Below, one piece after another: positions 7,948 to 16,181 of a stretch of DNA of 64,000 bases. Below the pieces are notes generated by a model. That model searched no databases. It worked only from the letters and a program-made list of their open reading frames with translations, and was not told the DNA's origin. Position numbers and translations under genes: made by a program. This stretch comes from a virus, in IMG/VR virus record IMGVR_UViG_3300005617_000117, positions 1-64,000 of that record. The stretch is one strand, 5' to 3'. How positions within the stretch are numbered: the first letter of the stretch is position 1; each line of letters opens with the position of its first letter.

Positions 7948-7981
7948 TCGATATAATCGCAATTTTATTACGGTGAGGTCA

Positions 7982-10339
7982 ATGGTTAAAAAGACAAGAG
8001 GCGATATTAAGTTAGAAGCCATGCTGAGCCGATCAGCCAGTCCCGACACTATGTCACAGTCTACCGTGCGGGCCAATCAAAACAGGGCCATCGCTTATAC
8101 TGGCGGCAACGGCTTTTTAGGCGACAGCATTGAGCGTCGCTTCGATAATGGCGGCAATGGCACATTAAATAACCCGAGTGCATATGAAAGTGCCTACGGG
8201 ATTTACGGTAGTACCAGCACTGGTCCCTACGGTCGCCCAGGTGGCCTTTATAGTTCTGGTTTTAAATACCTTAAGAGATTTGCTGGTAACGCCAGTTTCA
8301 TTCATCAAATCATTGCATCCTGCGTTCTTTGCTATATCGGCGAAGGAGTAGTTCGTAGAGTTCTCGATCTTTATGCAGACTTCGTTTGCGAGAATTTCAT
8401 TATTCAGCATCCAGATAAGTCTGTTCGTAATTTCTATACCGCATGGGCTAAGAAGACAAAACTGAAGCTTCGACTTCGAACGTTCTTCTTGACGTTGTTC
8501 ACAACGGGTAACGTTTTTATTTATCGTCATTGGGCATCCCTAAAACCAGAGGACATCAAGGCTTTAAAGAGACTTGAGGCCAAGCTTATAGGAGAACAGT
8601 TATACGTCCAAGATAAGGAAGAAGACCGACAGGTGATTGCCGGTAAACCCGAAAAAACAAAGTGGCTCGATAATTTTATTGCTGCTAAAAAAGCCATTGC
8701 CCTACAAGATCCAAATACTCCAGAAATGAAGGATAGTGAACCGGCATCAAATGACGACATGATTCCGTGGGGATATACTGCTCTTAATCCATTGCAGATG
8801 GAATTGAGAGGCAAAAGATTTAAGGGTGAAAGTTATTGGGCCATTGCTCTTGATAAGAGCGAAGTCAGTGAACTTGCCAATCAATTCGGCATGACTGGTA
8901 ACAATAGCGACATTAGTTTTACGCGAATTAATCTGCCGTCTGAATTCAAGTCAAAAATTGCCAAATACCAGGGCACTGGTGTCGGTTATTCTGCCGAGAT
9001 TACTCTAGACTCACAGGATCTCAGCGTTGTACAAGATTACAAATTTGACTGGTTTGACTGGTCAATTCCCTTTGTTTATCCGGCTATTACGCCACTATAT
9101 TTCAAACAGTGTCTCCGAAAGATGGAGGCTCGTGCGTGCGAGAGCGTAATCAATTCTATATTCCTATTTAAGCTTGGAAATCTAGAAAAGGGAATGCCTG
9201 CGGAAGATGAGCATTTCGAACGTCTTGCTGACATGCTCCAGCAACCCGGTCAAGTCCAAAACATTCTTTGGAATGAAGCGATCAGTGCCGAAGTAATCCA
9301 GCCTGATATCAATCAAATTTTCGATGCCAAGAAGCATGTTTCTGCTGACCGAGATATCATGATGGCTCTTGGTATTCCAGAAGTCATGCTCGGTGGAGCG
9401 GGTGGTTCATACACAAACTCGTTCGTTGCTCTACAAACGGTTTTGGAAAGACTTGAATCTGCTCGTGATCTATTTGAAGACTGGATGCTTTCCGAAATGG
9501 CAATCATTGCCAAAGTAATGAAGTTCCGTCGTCTCCCAACTATTAAATGGGATAACAGTAGCTTGCAGGACGAGAGTGCCATTCGCACTTTATATATGAA
9601 CTTATTCGATCGTGGCATTATCTCACGCGATACGCTGTTACGCGAATTCGATACAGACTTCGATACTGAACTTGGCAAGCAAGAAGAGGAGACAGAAGTT
9701 GTGCCTCTTGATTCTGATTCTAATGACAAAGTAATGAAGAAGCGTGGCCCTTATATTAAAGACGCTCCTCCGGCTCCAACATTGTCGGGCGGAGGTGCTG
9801 CACCAAAGACGCCTAATGGTCGTCCCGGTGGATCAAAAGAAGCTTTGCCGCGTGGCAAGCAATCTAAGCCTCGCAGCCCTGTAGGCCAGAGCAAAGCCCT
9901 ATTAGACGACTATGATGATCTCTTGGGCGTTGGTAAAGATATGTTGGATTCTATCGAAAATAGAATAAGTGATAAACTATTAAGAACTAAGGGATTGAAA
10001 TACGTTAAACAGCTAGAGGCTGCTGATCGTGAACGTCTTGAAGGTCTAATACATAATGTATTTAGTCATTTACCCAGTAGTAAGCCAGAGAAATTTGATA
10101 CAGAAGATTATTTGGTACAATTACTAGAGTCAGATGGTAATGCTCGTATTAAAGCAAATGTATTATCAATCTATGCTGATAAGATAGCACGTTATGAAGA
10201 TAAGTTTGGTAAACAGCCATCTAGGGAGCATAGAAGACAGTTTATTATTAGTGCCTGGACTCAGTGTGCCATCAACGAGCGGGCTGCCTCGGTTAATAAT
10301 CAGATTAGTGTATTAAATGAGGGAGACTCTGATGATTAA
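7982..10339 (+). CDS. Portal protein
   Basis: 785 residues from ATG 7982; a GTG at 7973 in the same frame is a second possibility. It directly follows the large terminase. The core (about residues 90-540) has portal-like features: VVRRVLDLYADFVCENF, the hydrophobic run LRTFFLTLFTTGNVFIYRHW and a long helical stem-like section. Residues about 575-640 are a Pro/Gly/Lys linker (RGPYIKDAPPAPTLSGGGAA and on), followed by a helical C-terminal domain. It would form the dodecameric entry ring on the capsid vertex. The last 400 bases use more AT-rich codons than the core, which hints at a later addition. Confidence 0.75.
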   Translation: MVKKTRGDIKLEAMLSRSASPDTMSQSTVRANQNRAIAYTGGNGFLGDSIERRFDNGGNGTLNNPSAYESAYGIYGSTSTGPYGRPGGLYSSGFKYLKRFAGNASFIHQIIASCVLCYIGEGVVRRVLDLYADFVCENFIIQHPDKSVRNFYTAWAKKTKLKLRLRTFFLTLFTTGNVFIYRHWASLKPEDIKALKRLEAKLIGEQLYVQDKEEDRQVIAGKPEKTKWLDNFIAAKKAIALQDPNTPEMKDSEPASNDDMIPWGYTALNPLQMELRGKRFKGESYWAIALDKSEVSELANQFGMTGNNSDISFTRINLPSEFKSKIAKYQGTGVGYSAEITLDSQDLSVVQDYKFDWFDWSIPFVYPAITPLYFKQCLRKMEARACESVINSIFLFKLGNLEKGMPAEDEHFERLADMLQQPGQVQNILWNEAISAEVIQPDINQIFDAKKHVSADRDIMMALGIPEVMLGGAGGSYTNSFVALQTVLERLESARDLFEDWMLSEMAIIAKVMKFRRLPTIKWDNSSLQDESAIRTLYMNLFDRGIISRDTLLREFDTDFDTELGKQEEETEVVPLDSDSNDKVMKKRGPYIKDAPPAPTLSGGGAAPKTPNGRPGGSKEALPRGKQSKPRSPVGQSKALLDDYDDLLGVGKDMLDSIENRISDKLLRTKGLKYVKQLEAADRERLEGLIHNVFSHLPSSKPEKFDTEDYLVQLLESDGNARIKANVLSIYADKIARYEDKFGKQPSREHRRQFIISAWTQCAINERAASVNNQISVLNEGDSDD
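10305..10315 (+). promoter_or_regulatory. TTAGTGTATTA motif inside the 3' end of the portal gene
   Basis: A full match to the boundary motif, TTAGTGTATTA, placed 26 bases before the start codon of the next gene at 10332. The spacing is the same as at 1040, 11892 and 16206. It lies in coding sequence, so chance is not excluded. Confidence 0.35.
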
Positions 10340-11084
10340 ATATGAAAATGGCCAGTATTGTGTTTATTCACATGATGGTTCTAAGAAAATGGGATGTTAT
10401 GCCTCCGAGGGTGAGGCTCAAAAACGATTAAAACAAATCGAATACTTTAAAAACGTAAAGTCAAGCGAGGGAATTAACATGGGAATTGATCGTGAGGCTC
10501 TAGCAAACAAGGCAATCTTAATGGTTGCTGCAAAAATTAATCCAAAGGCCGAAGTTCGTAATCGTGGGAATGTAGTGTTTCCTGCGGCCTCAAAAAAGGT
10601 CAAGGATAAGAAGGATCATTTCCCAATCAACAACGAGAATCAGGCGAGAAACGCTTTAGCTCGTGTTGCTCAGTACAGTTCTGTGCCGCCTTGGTATGAA
10701 GGCTCTCTTGAAGAGCTACAGAAGGCCGTTCAGAGTGCTGTAAAGGGCAAGTACCCAGGGATTGAAGTTAGTAAGTCAAAGGGCGATGTATCAGTCAAGG
10801 CTCCGCCTGACAATCCTACAAAAGTCCCGGGCATTGAGCGACCAAAGCTAGATGGTTCCAATGACGCCGCGAAAGTCTATGCAGTTCTTGCAGAGCTAAC
10901 TCCAGATCAGCACAAGGCGTTTGCGTCTGCTCTAGTCAAACAACTTCAGATGCAACAGAGCCAATTAAGCGAGGCCATTACGTTGGCCGAAAAGCTTTTG
11001 GACGAGGGGATTACCCAGGAAGAATTCGCAGCATTGTCAAACTGGACACAGTATGACGTTCTTGTGCAACTTATGGGTAGCTAA
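10332..11084 (+). CDS. Head-region protein with DUF6582-like domain
   Basis: 250 residues from ATG 10332 (AGGGAGA upstream), overlapping the portal stop. The N-terminus carries the motif YCVYSHDGSKKMGCYASEGE, then AQKRLKQIEYF, a short module I know from the ends of phage portal and prohead-protease proteins. The middle (KKDHFPINNENQARNALARV, then PPWYEGSLEELQKAVQSAV) matches a phage family of unknown function that I recall as DUF6582. The C-terminal part is helical. It is probably a minor head or assembly protein. Confidence 0.55.
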   Translation: MIKYENGQYCVYSHDGSKKMGCYASEGEAQKRLKQIEYFKNVKSSEGINMGIDREALANKAILMVAAKINPKAEVRNRGNVVFPAASKKVKDKKDHFPINNENQARNALARVAQYSSVPPWYEGSLEELQKAVQSAVKGKYPGIEVSKSKGDVSVKAPPDNPTKVPGIERPKLDGSNDAAKVYAVLAELTPDQHKAFASALVKQLQMQQSQLSEAITLAEKLLDEGITQEEFAALSNWTQYDVLVQLMGS

Positions 11085-11093
11085 GGAGGCTTA

Positions 11094-11375
11094 ATGTCTG
11101 CTTTACTTCTAAGCGGTTTTAAGAACAACATCAATATTATCGCCATTCGTGCGAGTGCGAGAACTCAGGTATACACAGATCGTGCCATCGACTTAAATGG
11201 CGACGGTATTAAAGAAGCTATTACTTCTGTGGGCGTACCAACTGGCACTGGTATTAAAGTGCAACAGACTGTCACGGTCAATCAAGGTGCCGCGAGAACA
11301 ATCGTTGAGGGATCGGATGCAGAATCCGTTAATACTCAAGACGGCGACACTTACTACACGTTGAGTAATCACTAA
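11094..11375 (+). CDS. Small head-region protein, unknown
   Basis: 93 residues, with a GGAGG Shine-Dalgarno. It is beta-rich (TQVYTDRAIDLNGDGIKEAI, then GIKVQQTVTVNQG). The segment DLNGDGIKE resembles a single calcium-binding loop of the dockerin/EF type, though it could be a chance turn. Encoded between head genes with an overlapping downstream start, so it is probably a minor structural protein. Confidence 0.55.
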   Translation: MSALLLSGFKNNINIIAIRASARTQVYTDRAIDLNGDGIKEAITSVGVPTGTGIKVQQTVTVNQGAARTIVEGSDAESVNTQDGDTYYTLSNH

Positions 11376-11851
11376 TGGAAACTCGTAAAGAAAAAGAAGA
11401 GAAGGCACTACACGACGTATTTAAAAGTGCGGCTGACCGAATTAAAGAGCCCGGGTTTTATAACAAGGGCACTCGTAGTCCGAGCCAGTTTTGGCCTCGT
11501 ACATCTGATTCCGCCGAGCCCGGTGACGAACATAGCCATATCGTAAAGCCACAAGGAAAAGAATGGACGTATGTGCCTGTGACAGAAGAAGATAAGGCTA
11601 TTTATGATGGCCTTCATATTCATACACAGAGCAATCCTACTGGTATGCACACTCACTTAAAAGGTGGCAAGTCTGGCGGGGCTCACACTCATAGCCCACA
11701 GAATCCTCTCGGTGGCCACACTCATAAAGATATTGATGTCAAGGATCGCACGAATCCCCAGGGATTCTCAATCGATGGACATCACTATCACGACTACAAT
11801 GAGAATAAGCCGGGCGGACAACACACGCATCACCCCGAAAACTTCGCTTAA
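11375..11851 (+). CDS. Histidine-rich protein with HTH(S/K/H) repeats
   Basis: 158 residues. The first 90 are ordinary and charged. From about residue 75 there are repeated His pairs: GLHIHTQ, GMHTHLK, GAHTHSP, GGHTHKD, DGHHYHDY and GQHTHHP, with Pro/Gly-rich spacers of about 12-16 residues. The pattern G-x-H-T-H suggests repeated metal-binding hairpins, possibly of the kind that chelate iron or zinc along the axis of phage spikes. Its place in the head cluster, just before the protease-scaffold gene, is unusual for a spike. Function unknown. Confidence 0.6.
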   Translation: METRKEKEEKALHDVFKSAADRIKEPGFYNKGTRSPSQFWPRTSDSAEPGDEHSHIVKPQGKEWTYVPVTEEDKAIYDGLHIHTQSNPTGMHTHLKGGKSGGAHTHSPQNPLGGHTHKDIDVKDRTNPQGFSIDGHHYHDYNENKPGGQHTHHPENFA

Positions 11852-11861
11852 TAATTCAACT

Positions 11862-11873
11862 TTTAGTTTATTT
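11862..11873 (+). promoter_or_regulatory. Variant boundary motif TTTAGTTTATTT
   Basis: TTTAGTTTATTTTG differs from TTTAGTGTATTTTR by one base. It lies in the 40-base gap before the protease-scaffold gene, with 28 bases from TAG to the ATG at 11892. Confidence 0.3.
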
Positions 11874-11891
11874 TGATGGTTGAGATTTAAT

Positions 11892-13697
11892 ATGAATAAA
11901 CCGTTCAAGACGTATGTAACTGCTAAAGCAGAGTTGGTTGATAAAGGTTCTGACCAATTTAAAGCTATGGCAGCGACAATTCAAGAAAAGTACGGCTTTG
12001 AGCTAAAGGCTCAAATTGACTTACAGTACGTACGCTCTTGTCTTGTTACAAGCGGTATGAACGGGAATGACGATATATTTCTACGCGACGAAATGTGGAA
12101 TGCCCGTCATTCACCAGTAATGAAGCCTGCCAACTGGCAACACAAGGATAAGGACATTATTGGGGTTGTTTATAGTGTTGAAGCCCGGGATCTTGATGGA
12201 AACGTGCTCGATTTAAATCAGGAAGAACCGCCTGATGTACCGTATGAATACTGGACTGAGGCAGTCGTATTTAAGTTAATCCATCGTGATCGTGCCAACG
12301 AGATTGAGGAAAGAGCCGCAAAAGGCACTTTATTCGTCTCAATGGAAGCGTGGTTCGATGATTATGGCTACGGATTCATTAAAGATAATGAACCTACCAA
12401 GATAATCGCCCGCAACGACCAGACATCCTTCCTAGATACTCATTTAAGAGCAAACGGTGGGTCTGGTAAGTATGATAATGTTAAAATCGGTAGGGCTCTA
12501 AAAGGTATTACTTTCGGTGGATACGGATTTGTTGACGTACCTGCTAATAAGCGATCTGTGATAGATAGTGTAATATCCAACATTGAGCCTGCGGTTTCTA
12601 GCGAAACTAACGCCGACTTAGATAAGTTAATACAAAGTTTGTTCAAAGAAGAACAGGAGATTGATATGACAAAGACGGTAGCACAGGACGCGGGTACGGG
12701 TGATTCACCTGTAAATGTAGATCCTAACGCGATTGCAAAGGCTGTTGCCGATGCGATCGAAGCCCGCGAAGCGGCCAAGGCCGCTGCCGATGCCGAAGCA
12801 AAGGCAAAAGCACAGGCCGCAGAATCAGCAAAGACTGCTGCCGCGAATGCCGAAAAGGTCGTAACGCTTGATGGTGCCGTAAAGGCCGCAGAAGGCAAGA
12901 CGACTGCTGCTCTTGAACTTGTCAAGACACGCGATGCGGCTCTAAATGAAGTTGTCAAGGCACTAGCTGGTGCAACGTCAGATACGCCTCCTGAGATTGC
13001 TGCGATTGACGCGGCGAATGCTCAGAATTCAGGCGAAGCAGATTTCCAGGCCAAGATTGCTTGGATCAAGAACTCAGTAGCTAGCAAGGTTGCTCCTGCG
13101 ATGGCAGAACTAACCGATCTTAAGAAGAAGCTATCTGCTGCTGCTGCAACTCTCCGCGAACAAGAAGTTCGTGATCTTCTAAAGGACGTTCTTTCAGAAG
13201 CAGAGGTTGCCACAATGGTAACTGTTGCATCCAAGAAGGATGACGCTGCTTATGCTGAATGGTTCGCAGAGAAAGAACTATTCGTTGAGCGAATCAAGGG
13301 TGCCAAGGCTCCTCCTGCAAAGAAGGATGAAAAGGCTGCCGACAAGAAAGAGGATGTTAAGGAAGATTGCTCAATGGCTGCTGTTATCAACGAACTTGTT
13401 AAGGTTCGTAAGAGTGCGAACGCTGACGTAAACTCTGGCGTTCAGGCTGGCCCTCTAAAGAATCCGCGATTCAAGATTGCCGGTTCTGAGGAATCCGTTG
13501 AGGATGTCCTTGATGGTGCCAAGAAGGAAGAGAAGATCGATCTCACCGCTGCAAAGGGTGGGAACGATGATGAAAAAGAAAATGGTTTCCGCACACTAGC
13601 TGCGGCGATCGTAAACAATGACAAGAAGGCAAATCCACGGCCCGGCAAAGCCAAGGCTGGTTTTGATCCTGTAGACAACGAAAGTAAGGGAGAATAA
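11892..13697 (+). CDS. Prohead protease-scaffold fusion
   Basis: 601 residues from ATG 11892 (a TTG at 11880 is also in frame). Residues about 45-230 look like a prohead maturation protease: GNDDIFLRDEMWNARHSPV, then KPANWQHKDKDIIGVVYSVE with candidate catalytic His, VSMEAWF with candidate Ser, and ITFGGYGFVDVPANKRSVI near the end. I infer the protease class from this pattern. Residues 259-601 are Ala/Lys/Glu-rich and helical (KAVADAIEAREAAKAAADAE and so on), as expected of a scaffold. A strong internal start at 12666 would make the scaffold part alone. The gene sits immediately before the decoration and capsid genes. Confidence 0.65.
   Translation: MNKPFKTYVTAKAELVDKGSDQFKAMAATIQEKYGFELKAQIDLQYVRSCLVTSGMNGNDDIFLRDEMWNARHSPVMKPANWQHKDKDIIGVVYSVEARDLDGNVLDLNQEEPPDVPYEYWTEAVVFKLIHRDRANEIEERAAKGTLFVSMEAWFDDYGYGFIKDNEPTKIIARNDQTSFLDTHLRANGGSGKYDNVKIGRALKGITFGGYGFVDVPANKRSVIDSVISNIEPAVSSETNADLDKLIQSLFKEEQEIDMTKTVAQDAGTGDSPVNVDPNAIAKAVADAIEAREAAKAAADAEAKAKAQAAESAKTAAANAEKVVTLDGAVKAAEGKTTAALELVKTRDAALNEVVKALAGATSDTPPEIAAIDAANAQNSGEADFQAKIAWIKNSVASKVAPAMAELTDLKKKLSAAAATLREQEVRDLLKDVLSEAEVATMVTVASKKDDAAYAEWFAEKELFVERIKGAKAPPAKKDEKAADKKEDVKEDCSMAAVINELVKVRKSANADVNSGVQAGPLKNPRFKIAGSEESVEDVLDGAKKEEKIDLTAAKGGNDDEKENGFRTLAAAIVNNDKKANPRPGKAKAGFDPVDNESKGE
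12566..12576 (+). promoter_or_regulatory. Internal TAGTGTAATAT motif before the nested scaffold start
   Basis: TAGTGTAAT inside the protease-coding part, exactly 100 bases upstream of the internal ATG 12666. It may give a separate scaffold transcript. A second coding-region match at 18314 has no start nearby, so chance occurrence is possible. Confidence 0.25.
12666..13697 (+). CDS. Nested in-frame scaffold protein
   Basis: ATG 12666 is in frame with the protease gene and has a strong Shine-Dalgarno (AGGAG at 12655-12659, 6 bases away). It would yield 343 residues starting MTKTVAQDAG, which begins precisely where the protease domain ends and the Ala/Glu/Lys-rich helical region starts. This mirrors the arrangement of lambda C and Nu3, where a scaffold is translated from an internal start of the protease gene. 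The product would drive capsid assembly and be removed by the protease. The internal site is seen directly; its use is inference. Confidence 0.55.
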   Translation: MTKTVAQDAGTGDSPVNVDPNAIAKAVADAIEAREAAKAAADAEAKAKAQAAESAKTAAANAEKVVTLDGAVKAAEGKTTAALELVKTRDAALNEVVKALAGATSDTPPEIAAIDAANAQNSGEADFQAKIAWIKNSVASKVAPAMAELTDLKKKLSAAAATLREQEVRDLLKDVLSEAEVATMVTVASKKDDAAYAEWFAEKELFVERIKGAKAPPAKKDEKAADKKEDVKEDCSMAAVINELVKVRKSANADVNSGVQAGPLKNPRFKIAGSEESVEDVLDGAKKEEKIDLTAAKGGNDDEKENGFRTLAAAIVNNDKKANPRPGKAKAGFDPVDNESKGE

Positions 13698-13699
13698 CG

Positions 13700-14182
13700 A
13701 TGGGTCTATTACCTGCAAGACAAGTATTTGATACGAACGTTGATCTCACCGTATCCGGTGTAGCTGAACGTGGTGGTATTCTCTCATTCGTTCCGGGCGT
13801 AAACGGCCTTGGTGCGTATGCGAATGCGACTGCGGTTTCAGGGGCTCTAGTGCAGCCTGCTGGTCTGCTTCTAGATGACGTTGAAGCCATCAACAACATG
13901 AATCAGCCTGAATACCGTCAGCGTAACGTAGTTCCACAGGGCTCAGTAGTCGGCATTGCGACCGAAGGTGAGTTCTGGACGGACTTCGTAGAGCAGACGC
14001 TAGCTGGTCAGTCTGTTGGAACTTATGTTCCTGGCGATCCGCTATACATGGCAGACGATGGCAAGCTAAGCCGTAACAACGGAACTCTAGCGAATGCCGC
14101 GACCGCAAAGCGACAGCTTGTCGGCCGTGCATTGAGTGCCCTCGGATCTGACGGCTATCTACACGTAAGAATCGAACTATAA
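13700..14182 (+). CDS. Capsid decoration-like protein (paralogue 1)
   Basis: 160 residues between scaffold and major capsid genes, the usual place for a head decoration protein. Residues 16-30 (VSGVAERGGILSFVP) and the pattern of Gly/Pro turns with VVPQGSVVGIATEGEF and a final RALSALGSDGYLHVRIEL give a beta-rich fold. The same layout, including SERGGILSY, occurs in the gene at 17075, so the two are paralogues. Start ATG 13700 has GGGAGAA upstream. Codon choice is that of the highly expressed capsid gene next door. Confidence 0.6.
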   Translation: MGLLPARQVFDTNVDLTVSGVAERGGILSFVPGVNGLGAYANATAVSGALVQPAGLLLDDVEAINNMNQPEYRQRNVVPQGSVVGIATEGEFWTDFVEQTLAGQSVGTYVPGDPLYMADDGKLSRNNGTLANAATAKRQLVGRALSALGSDGYLHVRIEL

Positions 14183-14209
14183 TACTAGTTCGCTAACAAG
14201 GAGATTAGA

Positions 14210-15241
14210 ATGAAAAAGTATGATCCTGCTGCTGTTGCAGCCCTTAAGCTAACTGCCGCTCCTAATGCGTCAGAACGCGAACAAGCTCAGAAGGCTTTTG
14301 CCGCTGAACTTAACTGGCCTCTACGCCAGGGTGTTTTCGATCGTGACAACACGGGCGAAATTTATGAGCGTCAGGTTCTACAGCCCGGTGCTCAGGCCAA
14401 CTATCCTCTAGACTTCGTACGTCCTGGCGAAGAGGATAACTACATGGCGTTCACCATGCCCAAGCAGGGTAAGGTGCCTGAACGTCACGTTGAAGGCGAC
14501 GAGCTATGGGTTCCTACATTCCGAATTGCCAATTCAATCGATTGGGACATTCGGTATGCGGAAGAGGCTCGTTTCGACGTAATCATGCGAGCGATCCGGG
14601 TCTATGAAGCCGGTTTCGTCCGCAAGATCAACTCCGACGCATGGCGAACGATTCTCGCGGCGGCGGATGGTCGTGGCTTGATTGTCACTGCTAACGGCAG
14701 TGCTCCATTCACTGGCTCAAGCGTAGCTGTAACGGCTGCTGCGGGTCAGTTCACCAAGGAACTAATCAGCCGAATGAAGACGGCGATGGTTCGTGGTGCG
14801 GGTGGCAACGGCAACTCTGGTCGTCTAACTGACGTTTATCTCTCACTCGAAGCGATGGAAGACATCCGTGCGTGGGACGTAGACGAAATCGATGAGTTCA
14901 CTCGTCGTGAAATCTTCGTCAACCGTGAGTACGGACTAGCATCAATCTATGGTGTTATCCTCCACGAAATGACGGAGTTCGGTGAGGGCCAGGAATATGA
15001 AGTATTCCTATCCAGCACGCTTGGCCGTGCCCACCAGACACAGGCTTCTGCTCTATGCAAGGAGTTCTGCGTAGGACTCGATCTATCAACCAACGACTCA
15101 TTCGTAATGCCTATCCGTAAGGAACTAGAAACATACGAAGATCCTACTCTCTATCGTCAACAGAGAGCCGGAATCTACGGCTGGATGGAGCACGGTTTCG
15201 CCGTACTCGACGCTCGTAGAGTGATCCTTGGAGAGTTCTAA
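14210..15241 (+). CDS. Major capsid protein
   Basis: 343 residues, preceded by AAGGAG and followed by a strong terminator. Position after scaffold and decoration genes, size, and codon bias (GGT, CGT, CTA, TTC and GAA dominate) fit a very highly expressed coat protein of HK97 fold. Features include a helical N-terminus (AAALKLTAAPNASEREQAQK), a likely E-loop (YPLDFVRPGEEDNYMAF), and an alpha-beta C-terminal part (GLASIYGVILHEMTEFGEGQ). No cleavage site is obvious to me. Assignment rests on context and composition rather than a diagnostic motif. Confidence 0.75.
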   Translation: MKKYDPAAVAALKLTAAPNASEREQAQKAFAAELNWPLRQGVFDRDNTGEIYERQVLQPGAQANYPLDFVRPGEEDNYMAFTMPKQGKVPERHVEGDELWVPTFRIANSIDWDIRYAEEARFDVIMRAIRVYEAGFVRKINSDAWRTILAAADGRGLIVTANGSAPFTGSSVAVTAAAGQFTKELISRMKTAMVRGAGGNGNSGRLTDVYLSLEAMEDIRAWDVDEIDEFTRREIFVNREYGLASIYGVILHEMTEFGEGQEYEVFLSSTLGRAHQTQASALCKEFCVGLDLSTNDSFVMPIRKELETYEDPTLYRQQRAGIYGWMEHGFAVLDARRVILGEF

Positions 15242-15529: not shown

Positions 15530-15745
15530 ATGGCTACAGCACCAGGGACACCAAGTCCAACCGACACAGCGGCACCAGCGGCGGCGAGCGGGCAAACACT
15601 CTCAACGAGTTGCCCCGACCCTAAGAATCCGGGATCTCCGTGGGTCATTACGACAACTCGTCTACCTAAAGAGACGTTAGTTGCTTGGTTTAAGAGACAT
15701 CAGGCTGCGGTAACTGCGGTAAATCGTTTCCTTAAAGATGTCTAA
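15530..15745 (+). CDS. Small protein, tandem paralogue B
   Basis: 71 residues, with GGAG 10 bases upstream. The Ala/Thr/Pro-rich N-terminus is followed by a short beta part (GSPWVITTTRLP) and the same C-terminal helix as its neighbour, KETLVAWFKRHQAAVTAVNR. The end overlaps the RNase H gene by 8 bases. Confidence 0.65.
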   Translation: MATAPGTPSPTDTAAPAAASGQTLSTSCPDPKNPGSPWVITTTRLPKETLVAWFKRHQAAVTAVNRFLKDV

Positions 15746-16181
15746 ACTAACTGTATACACCGATGGCTCTTGCCGGTGCGATACCGGCAAGGGCGGTTGG
15801 GGAGCAGTTATTATTTTAGAGGACGGCACAATTCACAAGTTATCGGGTTCAGAACCGCGAACAACAAACAATCGGATGGAACTACTAGCAGCAATTAAAG
15901 CTTTAGAGTTTATTGCCGAAAAATTTGATACTAAAAATAATATTACATTCTATACAGATTCTACTTATCTTTCTCGTGGCATGACTGAATGGACCAAGGG
16001 ATGGAAGAAAAGACAGTGGAAAATGAAGAATGGAAAAGCCATGAAAAATCAGGATTTATGGCTGCAACTTGATACTTTGGCTTGTTGCCAAAAAGCTAAA
16101 TGGAAATGGATTAAGGCACATAACGGGAATAAGTACAACGAAATGGCGGACGGTCTAGCTCAAGAGGCTTCTTTGCCATAG
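15738..16181 (+). CDS. rnhA: Ribonuclease HI
   Basis: 147 residues, close to the normal 150-155 for type I enzymes. All four catalytic acids can be placed: Asp9 (VYTDGS), Glu48 (NNRMELLAA), Asp74 (FYTDST) and Asp138 (NEMADGLA), with the assisting His128 (KAHNG). The basic handle-like segment WTKGWKKRQWKMKNGK is present. It degrades RNA in RNA-DNA hybrids, for example primers or R-loops. The location among virion genes, away from the replication module at 44-54 kb, is unexpected. It ends in TAG, which forms part of the TAGTGTATT motif. Confidence 0.92.
   Translation: MSKLTVYTDGSCRCDTGKGGWGAVIILEDGTIHKLSGSEPRTTNNRMELLAAIKALEFIAEKFDTKNNITFYTDSTYLSRGMTEWTKGWKKRQWKMKNGKAMKNQDLWLQLDTLACCQKAKWKWIKAHNGNKYNEMADGLAQEASLP

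What the first reader, a model, noticed from the sequence alone, without database searches (positions are those of the whole stretch)
12555..13697. In-frame nested scaffold gene inside the prohead protease gene
ATG 12666 lies in frame, with AGGAG at 12655-12659, exactly at the junction between the protease-like part and the Ala/Glu/Lys-rich part. It would give a 343-residue scaffold, as in lambda C/Nu3. A TAGTGTAAT motif 100 bases upstream could add a separate transcript.
Basis: partly seen in the sequence, partly recalled or inferred. Interest (0 to 1): 0.7.

Follow-up and report, generated by a model that had tools for sequence, protein, structure and literature searches.

The report
Nested scaffold start inside protease gene
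In a large group of uncultured tailed phages, one gene appears to make two proteins, a whole head protease fused to a scaffold and, from a second start codon in the same frame, the scaffold alone; the principle is known from lambda, Mu and herpesviruses, but here it sits on a protease family that the searched databases do not recognise by sequence.

Summary
ATG 12666 is in frame, AGGAG 12655-12659 lies 6 nt upstream, and the gene (ATG 11892) and the nested frame give 601 and 343 residues. The proposed refutation test, conservation of the site, was run and the site passed. In 18 of 18 close homologous loci the ATG and its Shine-Dalgarno (SD) site are kept inside a linker that otherwise varies. 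A comparable in-frame ATG or GTG with an SD lies just after the protease domain in all 66 testable non-redundant relatives. Where the residue is Val it is always GTG (13 of 13; GTG is 22% of Val codons there). Synonymous codons are most conserved exactly at the SD. The internal site is much stronger than the gene's own first start, which fits little protease and much scaffold. The N-terminal part folds like herpesvirus assemblin and prohead proteases, with no Pfam, informative PHROG or PDB sequence match. The C-terminal part is long helices. Neighbours are portal, cement and major head protein genes. The TAGTGTAAT motif belongs to a real strand-specific, promoter-like family, but its copy here is shared only with the nearest relative. 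New member of a known kind. Translation from 12666 is inferred, not shown.

The parts
11892..13697 (+). Full-length protease-scaffold fusion gene, 601 aa, weak SD at its first start
   Evidence: SD duplex -3.9 in window, mean -1.8 in 18 loci
11892..12575 (+). Protease domain as modelled (residues 1-228; confident from about residue 41); invariant residues include H84, S150, M151, E152
   Evidence: AlphaFold2 pLDDT 90.3 on 65 sequences; alignment A2; Foldseek to herpesvirus proteases and prohead proteases
12566..12574 (+). TAGTGTAAT, promoter-like motif copy inside the gene (possible second transcript)
   Evidence: 9 TAGTGTAWT in window, 1.01 expected, all on + strand; same place only in L001
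12576..12665 (+). Variable linker between protease domain and scaffold
   Evidence: alignment; low model confidence at residues 217-278
12655..12659 (+). Internal Shine-Dalgarno AGGAG, 6 nt before ATG
   Evidence: synonymous constraint
12666..13697 (+). Nested in-frame scaffold gene, 343 aa
12723..12968 (+). Long helix of the scaffold part (protein residues 278-359)
   Evidence: AlphaFold2 secondary structure
13032..13181 (+). Second long helix (protein residues 381-430)
   Evidence: AlphaFold2 secondary structure
7973..10339 (+). Portal protein gene (context)
   Evidence: PHROG 2739 E 5.9e-19; found in 77 of 78 relatives' loci
13700..14182 (+). Probable capsid cement protein gene (context)
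   Evidence: Pfam PF22758 E 1.4e-4, below curated cut-off
14210..15241 (+). Major head protein gene (context); no room for a long N-terminal scaffold domain
   Evidence: PHROG 2522 E 5.3e-6, residues 19-242; 23% identity to phage G major head protein

Best explanation
One gene makes two head-assembly proteins from the same frame. Ribosomes starting at ATG 11892, which has a weak SD, make a small amount of a 601-residue protein with a serine-protease domain of the assemblin/prohead-protease fold followed by the scaffold. Ribosomes starting at ATG 12666, which has a stronger SD, make a larger amount of the 343-residue scaffold alone. The shared helical C-terminal part co-assembles in the procapsid, so the fusion carries the protease inside; after assembly the protease cuts scaffold and allows it to leave before DNA packaging. 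Shown here: the site, its conservation, the selection on its codons, the fold of the protease domain and the gene neighbourhood. Inferred: initiation at 12666 in cells, the ratio of the two products, the scaffold function and the cleavage.
For: (1) ATG kept at the homologous place in 18/18 close loci, all with an SD, although the linker around it varies in length and sequence. (2) SD duplex mean -8.8 at the internal start, -1.8 at the first start, -3.1 at other in-frame ATGs, of which 11% reach -6 against 18/18. (3) 66/66 testable non-redundant relatives have an in-frame ATG or GTG with an SD-like site soon after the PAN motif that ends the protease domain; mean score -10.5 against -6.4 after synonymous shuffling. 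(4) In clade B the position is ATG 8 times or GTG 13 times, never another Val codon, with GTG 22% of Val codons. (5) Window against L001: the longest run of identical codons in the gene (13; next longest 7) ends at the internal start. Clade B: the strongest synonymous conservation of 392 windows is 6-7 codons before the start, and the other strong peak is at the gene's 3' end, presumably the next gene's SD. (6) Every relative whose gene is complete in its contig keeps protease and scaffold fused in one frame. (7) Position between portal and cement/major head genes; long helices; protease fold.
Against: No expression data. For the window alone the SD is not exceptional (synonymous-shuffle P = 0.4), because a Glu-rich linker easily gives GGAG; the case rests on conservation. 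Relatives are not independent, so the counts overstate significance. In L034 the scan's best-scoring start was a different GTG, although the conserved ATG with its SD is also present. Foldseek matches to solved structures are weak (best E 5e-3, TM-score below 0.4). Scaffold function rests on position and helical content, not on a sequence match.
Confidence: 0.9

Rival explanations
1. The short form arises only by proteolysis: the protease cuts itself off at a release site in the linker, as herpesvirus assemblin does, and the conserved Met marks the cut site, not a start.
For: Herpesvirus pUL26 has both a release site and a nested product (PMC4498786); the linker is a natural cut site.
Against: A cut site would not require ATG/GTG only at the position, an SD at start-codon distance, or synonymous constraint. 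Cutting may occur in addition.
Confidence: 0.05
2. The SD-like sequence is a pause site that slows ribosomes between the two domains to help folding; there is no initiation.
For: It lies between two domains in a linker.
Against: A pause site needs no start codon 4-9 nt downstream; ATG/GTG are kept in all relatives examined.
Confidence: 0.03
3. Chance: a Met and a GGAG in a Glu-rich linker.
For: For the window alone synonymous shuffles reach the score 40% of the time.
Against: 18/18 at the homologous site, 66/66 in the wider set, start-codon-only use and synonymous constraint.
Confidence: 0.02
4. A refinement more than a rival: the scaffold is made mainly from a separate transcript started at the TAGTGTAAT motif at 12566, with the internal SD serving that transcript.
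For: TAGTGTAWT is over-represented and wholly on the coding strand (9 against 1.01 expected; TTAGTGTA 45 against 0 by strand in 17 relatives) and sits upstream of portal in most relatives; the 12566 copy is unchanged in L001.
Against: No copy at this place in any other close relative, while the SD is universal; two copies inside coding genes in the window could be partly chance; the base before the motif is A here, not the usual T.
Confidence: 0.25

Closest known systems
Phage lambda C/Nu3
   Same: Protease gene with the scaffold encoded in frame at its 3' part (PMC8508860, citing Shaw and Murialdo 1980)
   Different: Lambda C is an S49 (ClpP/SppA-like) peptidase (own knowledge); here no S49 match and an assemblin-type fold
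Phage Mu I/Z and Mu-like phages (PaMx73 gene 27, KS10 genes 28/29)
   Same: Scaffold start in frame within the protease gene with an SD; PaMx73 proposed to use Val177; the KS10 paper says this is so in many other phages
   Different: The protease here has no informative sequence match to known families; these are large phages with a different head module, and transposition was not examined
Herpesvirus UL26/UL26.5
   Same: Assemblin-fold protease at the N-terminus and scaffold at the C-terminus, with a nested in-frame gene for scaffold alone (PMC4498786); the 50 PDB hits listed are all herpesvirus proteases
   Different: Cytomegalovirus uses separate 3'-coterminal transcripts (reference title); here a bacterial-type SD serves an internal start; similarity is at fold level only and weak (TM below 0.4)
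Phage P2 gpO
   Same: Protease and scaffold in one gene (PMC8508860)
   Different: No nested internal start known to me for P2 O (own knowledge, not tested)

Membership tests
In-frame nested protease/scaffold genes (lambda C/Nu3, Mu I/Z, UL26/UL26.5 type) | Protease domain N-terminal, scaffold C-terminal, in one open frame | tested here: met
   (scaffold identity by position and helices only)
In-frame nested protease/scaffold genes (lambda C/Nu3, Mu I/Z, UL26/UL26.5 type) | Internal start codon with its own ribosome-binding site, conserved in relatives | tested here: met
In-frame nested protease/scaffold genes (lambda C/Nu3, Mu I/Z, UL26/UL26.5 type) | Short product made in infected cells | not testable with these tools
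   needs proteomics or ribosome profiling
In-frame nested protease/scaffold genes (lambda C/Nu3, Mu I/Z, UL26/UL26.5 type) | Located in the head module next to portal and major head protein | tested here: met
Assemblin / prohead protease fold superfamily | Fold | tested here: met
   Foldseek: viral library E down to 1.2e-11 with several prohead proteases; the 50 PDB hits listed are all herpesvirus proteases but E at best 5e-3
Assemblin / prohead protease fold superfamily | Catalytic Ser and His | tested here: inconclusive
   H84 and S150 invariant in 65 sequences, but residue-level structural superposition was not available
Peptidase S49 (lambda C type) | Sequence match to S49 profile | tested here: not met
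   no Pfam hit for the window protein or for any of 65 members

The most novel reading that the evidence does not exclude
A large, uncultured phage clade carries the herpesvirus UL26/UL26.5 plan in full: an assemblin-fold protease fused to a scaffold, a nested scaffold-only product and, in the window's own lineage, a promoter of its own for the nested gene. This would point to an old shared plan between herpesviruses and these phages, not one like the lambda-type proteases.
Probability: 0.2. Interest if true: 0.6.

Novelty: new member of a known kind. Interest (0 to 1): 0.42.

Why it matters
It shows that in-frame nesting of the scaffold in the protease gene holds across a wide set of large uncultured phages whose protease has no informative Pfam, PHROG or PDB sequence match and no match among 50,697 phage records. 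Gene callers would likely miss the second protein in all of them. The pairing of a herpesvirus-like protease fold with a nested scaffold makes the comparison with UL26/UL26.5 testable in a bacterial system.

Tried and rejected
INPHARED tblastn with the full protein and with the protease part gave nothing, even at E 0.1 for the latter. The first AlphaFold2 run on the full protein with 15 sequences was poor (pLDDT 56) and was supplemented by a domain run. The synonymous scan of the close set gave no clear signal at the start because the linker cannot be aligned there; clade B and the window-L001 pair were used instead. No Rfam match in 11000-14500. RNA folding around the internal start is unremarkable (z -1.4). 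Weak sequence hits of the C-terminal part to tail needle, troponin and similar proteins are coiled-coil noise. The PHROG hits of a few members are to families of unknown function, or in one case annotated DNA methyltransferase, and were not used.

Full report
The finding describes a second start inside the gene between portal and major head protein. The sequence is as described: AGGAG at 12655-12659, six bases, ATG at 12666; 343 residues to the stop at 13697; in frame with a 601-residue gene that starts at ATG 11892. The window is part of a 102,814-base virus record. Neither half of the protein matches Pfam or PHROGs, and tblastn against 50,697 phage records finds nothing.

Relatives exist among uncultured viral contigs. 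A first scan gave 17 loci with 37-75% identity in the best segment, many on contigs of 150-180 kb. In the alignment the linker between the two parts varies in length and sequence, but a Met stays in it. In all 18 loci (window included) the codon is ATG, and all have a GGAG- or GAGG-type SD 4-9 bases upstream. The duplex energy with the 16S tail averages -8.8 kcal/mol at this site, -1.8 at the gene's own first ATG, and about -3 at other in-frame ATGs or any codon. In the window the internal site (-7.4) is close to those of the cement (-8.4) and major head (-8.5) genes, while the first start of the protease gene is weak (-3.9). This fits a low amount of protease and a high amount of scaffold; the amounts themselves are inferred.

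A profile scan gave 79 loci from viral contigs, including those of the first scan, and one contig binned with a Hydrogenophaga genome. All whose gene is complete in the contig keep the two parts in one frame. At a 90% identity limit 67 remained, 66 of them testable. Each has an in-frame ATG (53) or GTG (13) with an SD-like site about 24-50 codons after the PAN motif that ends the protease domain (for L034 the scan's best score was another GTG, and the conserved ATG was used). Shuffling synonymous codons weakens the mean score from -10.5 to -6.4, but for single genes, the window included, shuffles often reach the observed value, because the linkers are rich in Glu and Gly. The conservation, not the single site, carries the case.

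Three tests separate a start site from a conserved peptide. In clade B the residue is Val or Met, and where it is Val the codon is always GTG (13 of 13), although GTG is 22% of Val codons in those genes; the two Gly codons of the SD are GGR GGT nearly throughout. In the same clade the strongest excess of codon identity among 392 windows of the gene is 6-7 codons before the start, and the next separate peak is at the end of the gene, where the SD of the next gene is expected, so the method has a built-in control. Between window and L001, 55% of codons for shared residues are identical, yet 13 in a row are identical just before the internal start, the longest run in the gene; the next is 7. Shuffles reach a run of 13 anywhere in 6% of cases. 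These sequences are related, so the counts are not probabilities.

The protease part was modelled on 65 sequences with pLDDT 90. Foldseek against viral models finds prohead proteases (best E about 1e-11, named prohead proteases from about 1e-7), and against solved structures the 50 listed are all herpesvirus proteases, though with E no better than 5e-3 and low TM-scores. H84 and S150 are invariant and are the likely catalytic pair (inferred). The C-terminal part is modelled mainly as long helices. The neighbours are terminase, portal, a probable cement protein and a major head protein remotely like that of phage G. The major head protein matches its profile from residue 19, so it seems to have no HK97-type delta domain; a separate scaffold is then needed, and this is the only long helical candidate seen in the head module (inference).

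TAGTGTAWT occurs 9 times in the window against 1.01 expected, always on the + strand, mostly just before genes. In 17 close relatives TTAGTGTA occurs 45 times on the + strand and never on the - strand, usually about 50 bases before portal and 25-50 before the gene that follows the head genes. It is a good candidate for a phage-specific late promoter. The copy at 12566 is kept at the same place in L001 only. A separate scaffold transcript is thus possible in this lineage but not general.

The arrangement is known: lambda C and P2 O as single genes for protease and scaffold, Mu and Mu-like phages with an internal in-frame start, KS10, whose authors say the same holds in many other phages, and herpesvirus UL26/UL26.5. 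By fold the herpesvirus pair is the nearer parallel; by mechanism (an internal SD) the phage cases are. It is filed as a new member of a known kind, in a protease family new to the searched databases and a large uncultured group.

Noticed in passing
window 7922, 10306, 12566, 16179, 18314, 19228, 31748, 32071, 42463 (+ strand): TAGTGTAWT occurs 9 times against 1.01 expected, all on the + strand and mostly just upstream of genes; TTAGTGTA is 45 to 0 by strand in 17 relatives. Candidate phage-specific late promoter; no clear strand bias in more distant relatives (13 to 8).
   Followed up: partly
window 15738-16181: A gene that reads like ribonuclease HI sits between the major head protein gene and the next structural gene; in several relatives the spacing shows the two neighbours to be adjacent, so it looks like an insertion.
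   Followed up: no
window 11375-11851: A small His-rich protein with repeated His-x-His stretches just upstream of the protease gene, found in 16 of 78 loci, mostly the close set.
   Followed up: no
L098: A close relative lies on a 158-kb contig binned with a Hydrogenophaga genome; this may hint at the host or be a binning error.
   Followed up: no
alignment of the C-terminus, window 13662-13673: The scaffold ends in or near a conserved FDP(V/I)-like motif in most relatives, possibly the contact with the major head protein.
   Followed up: no
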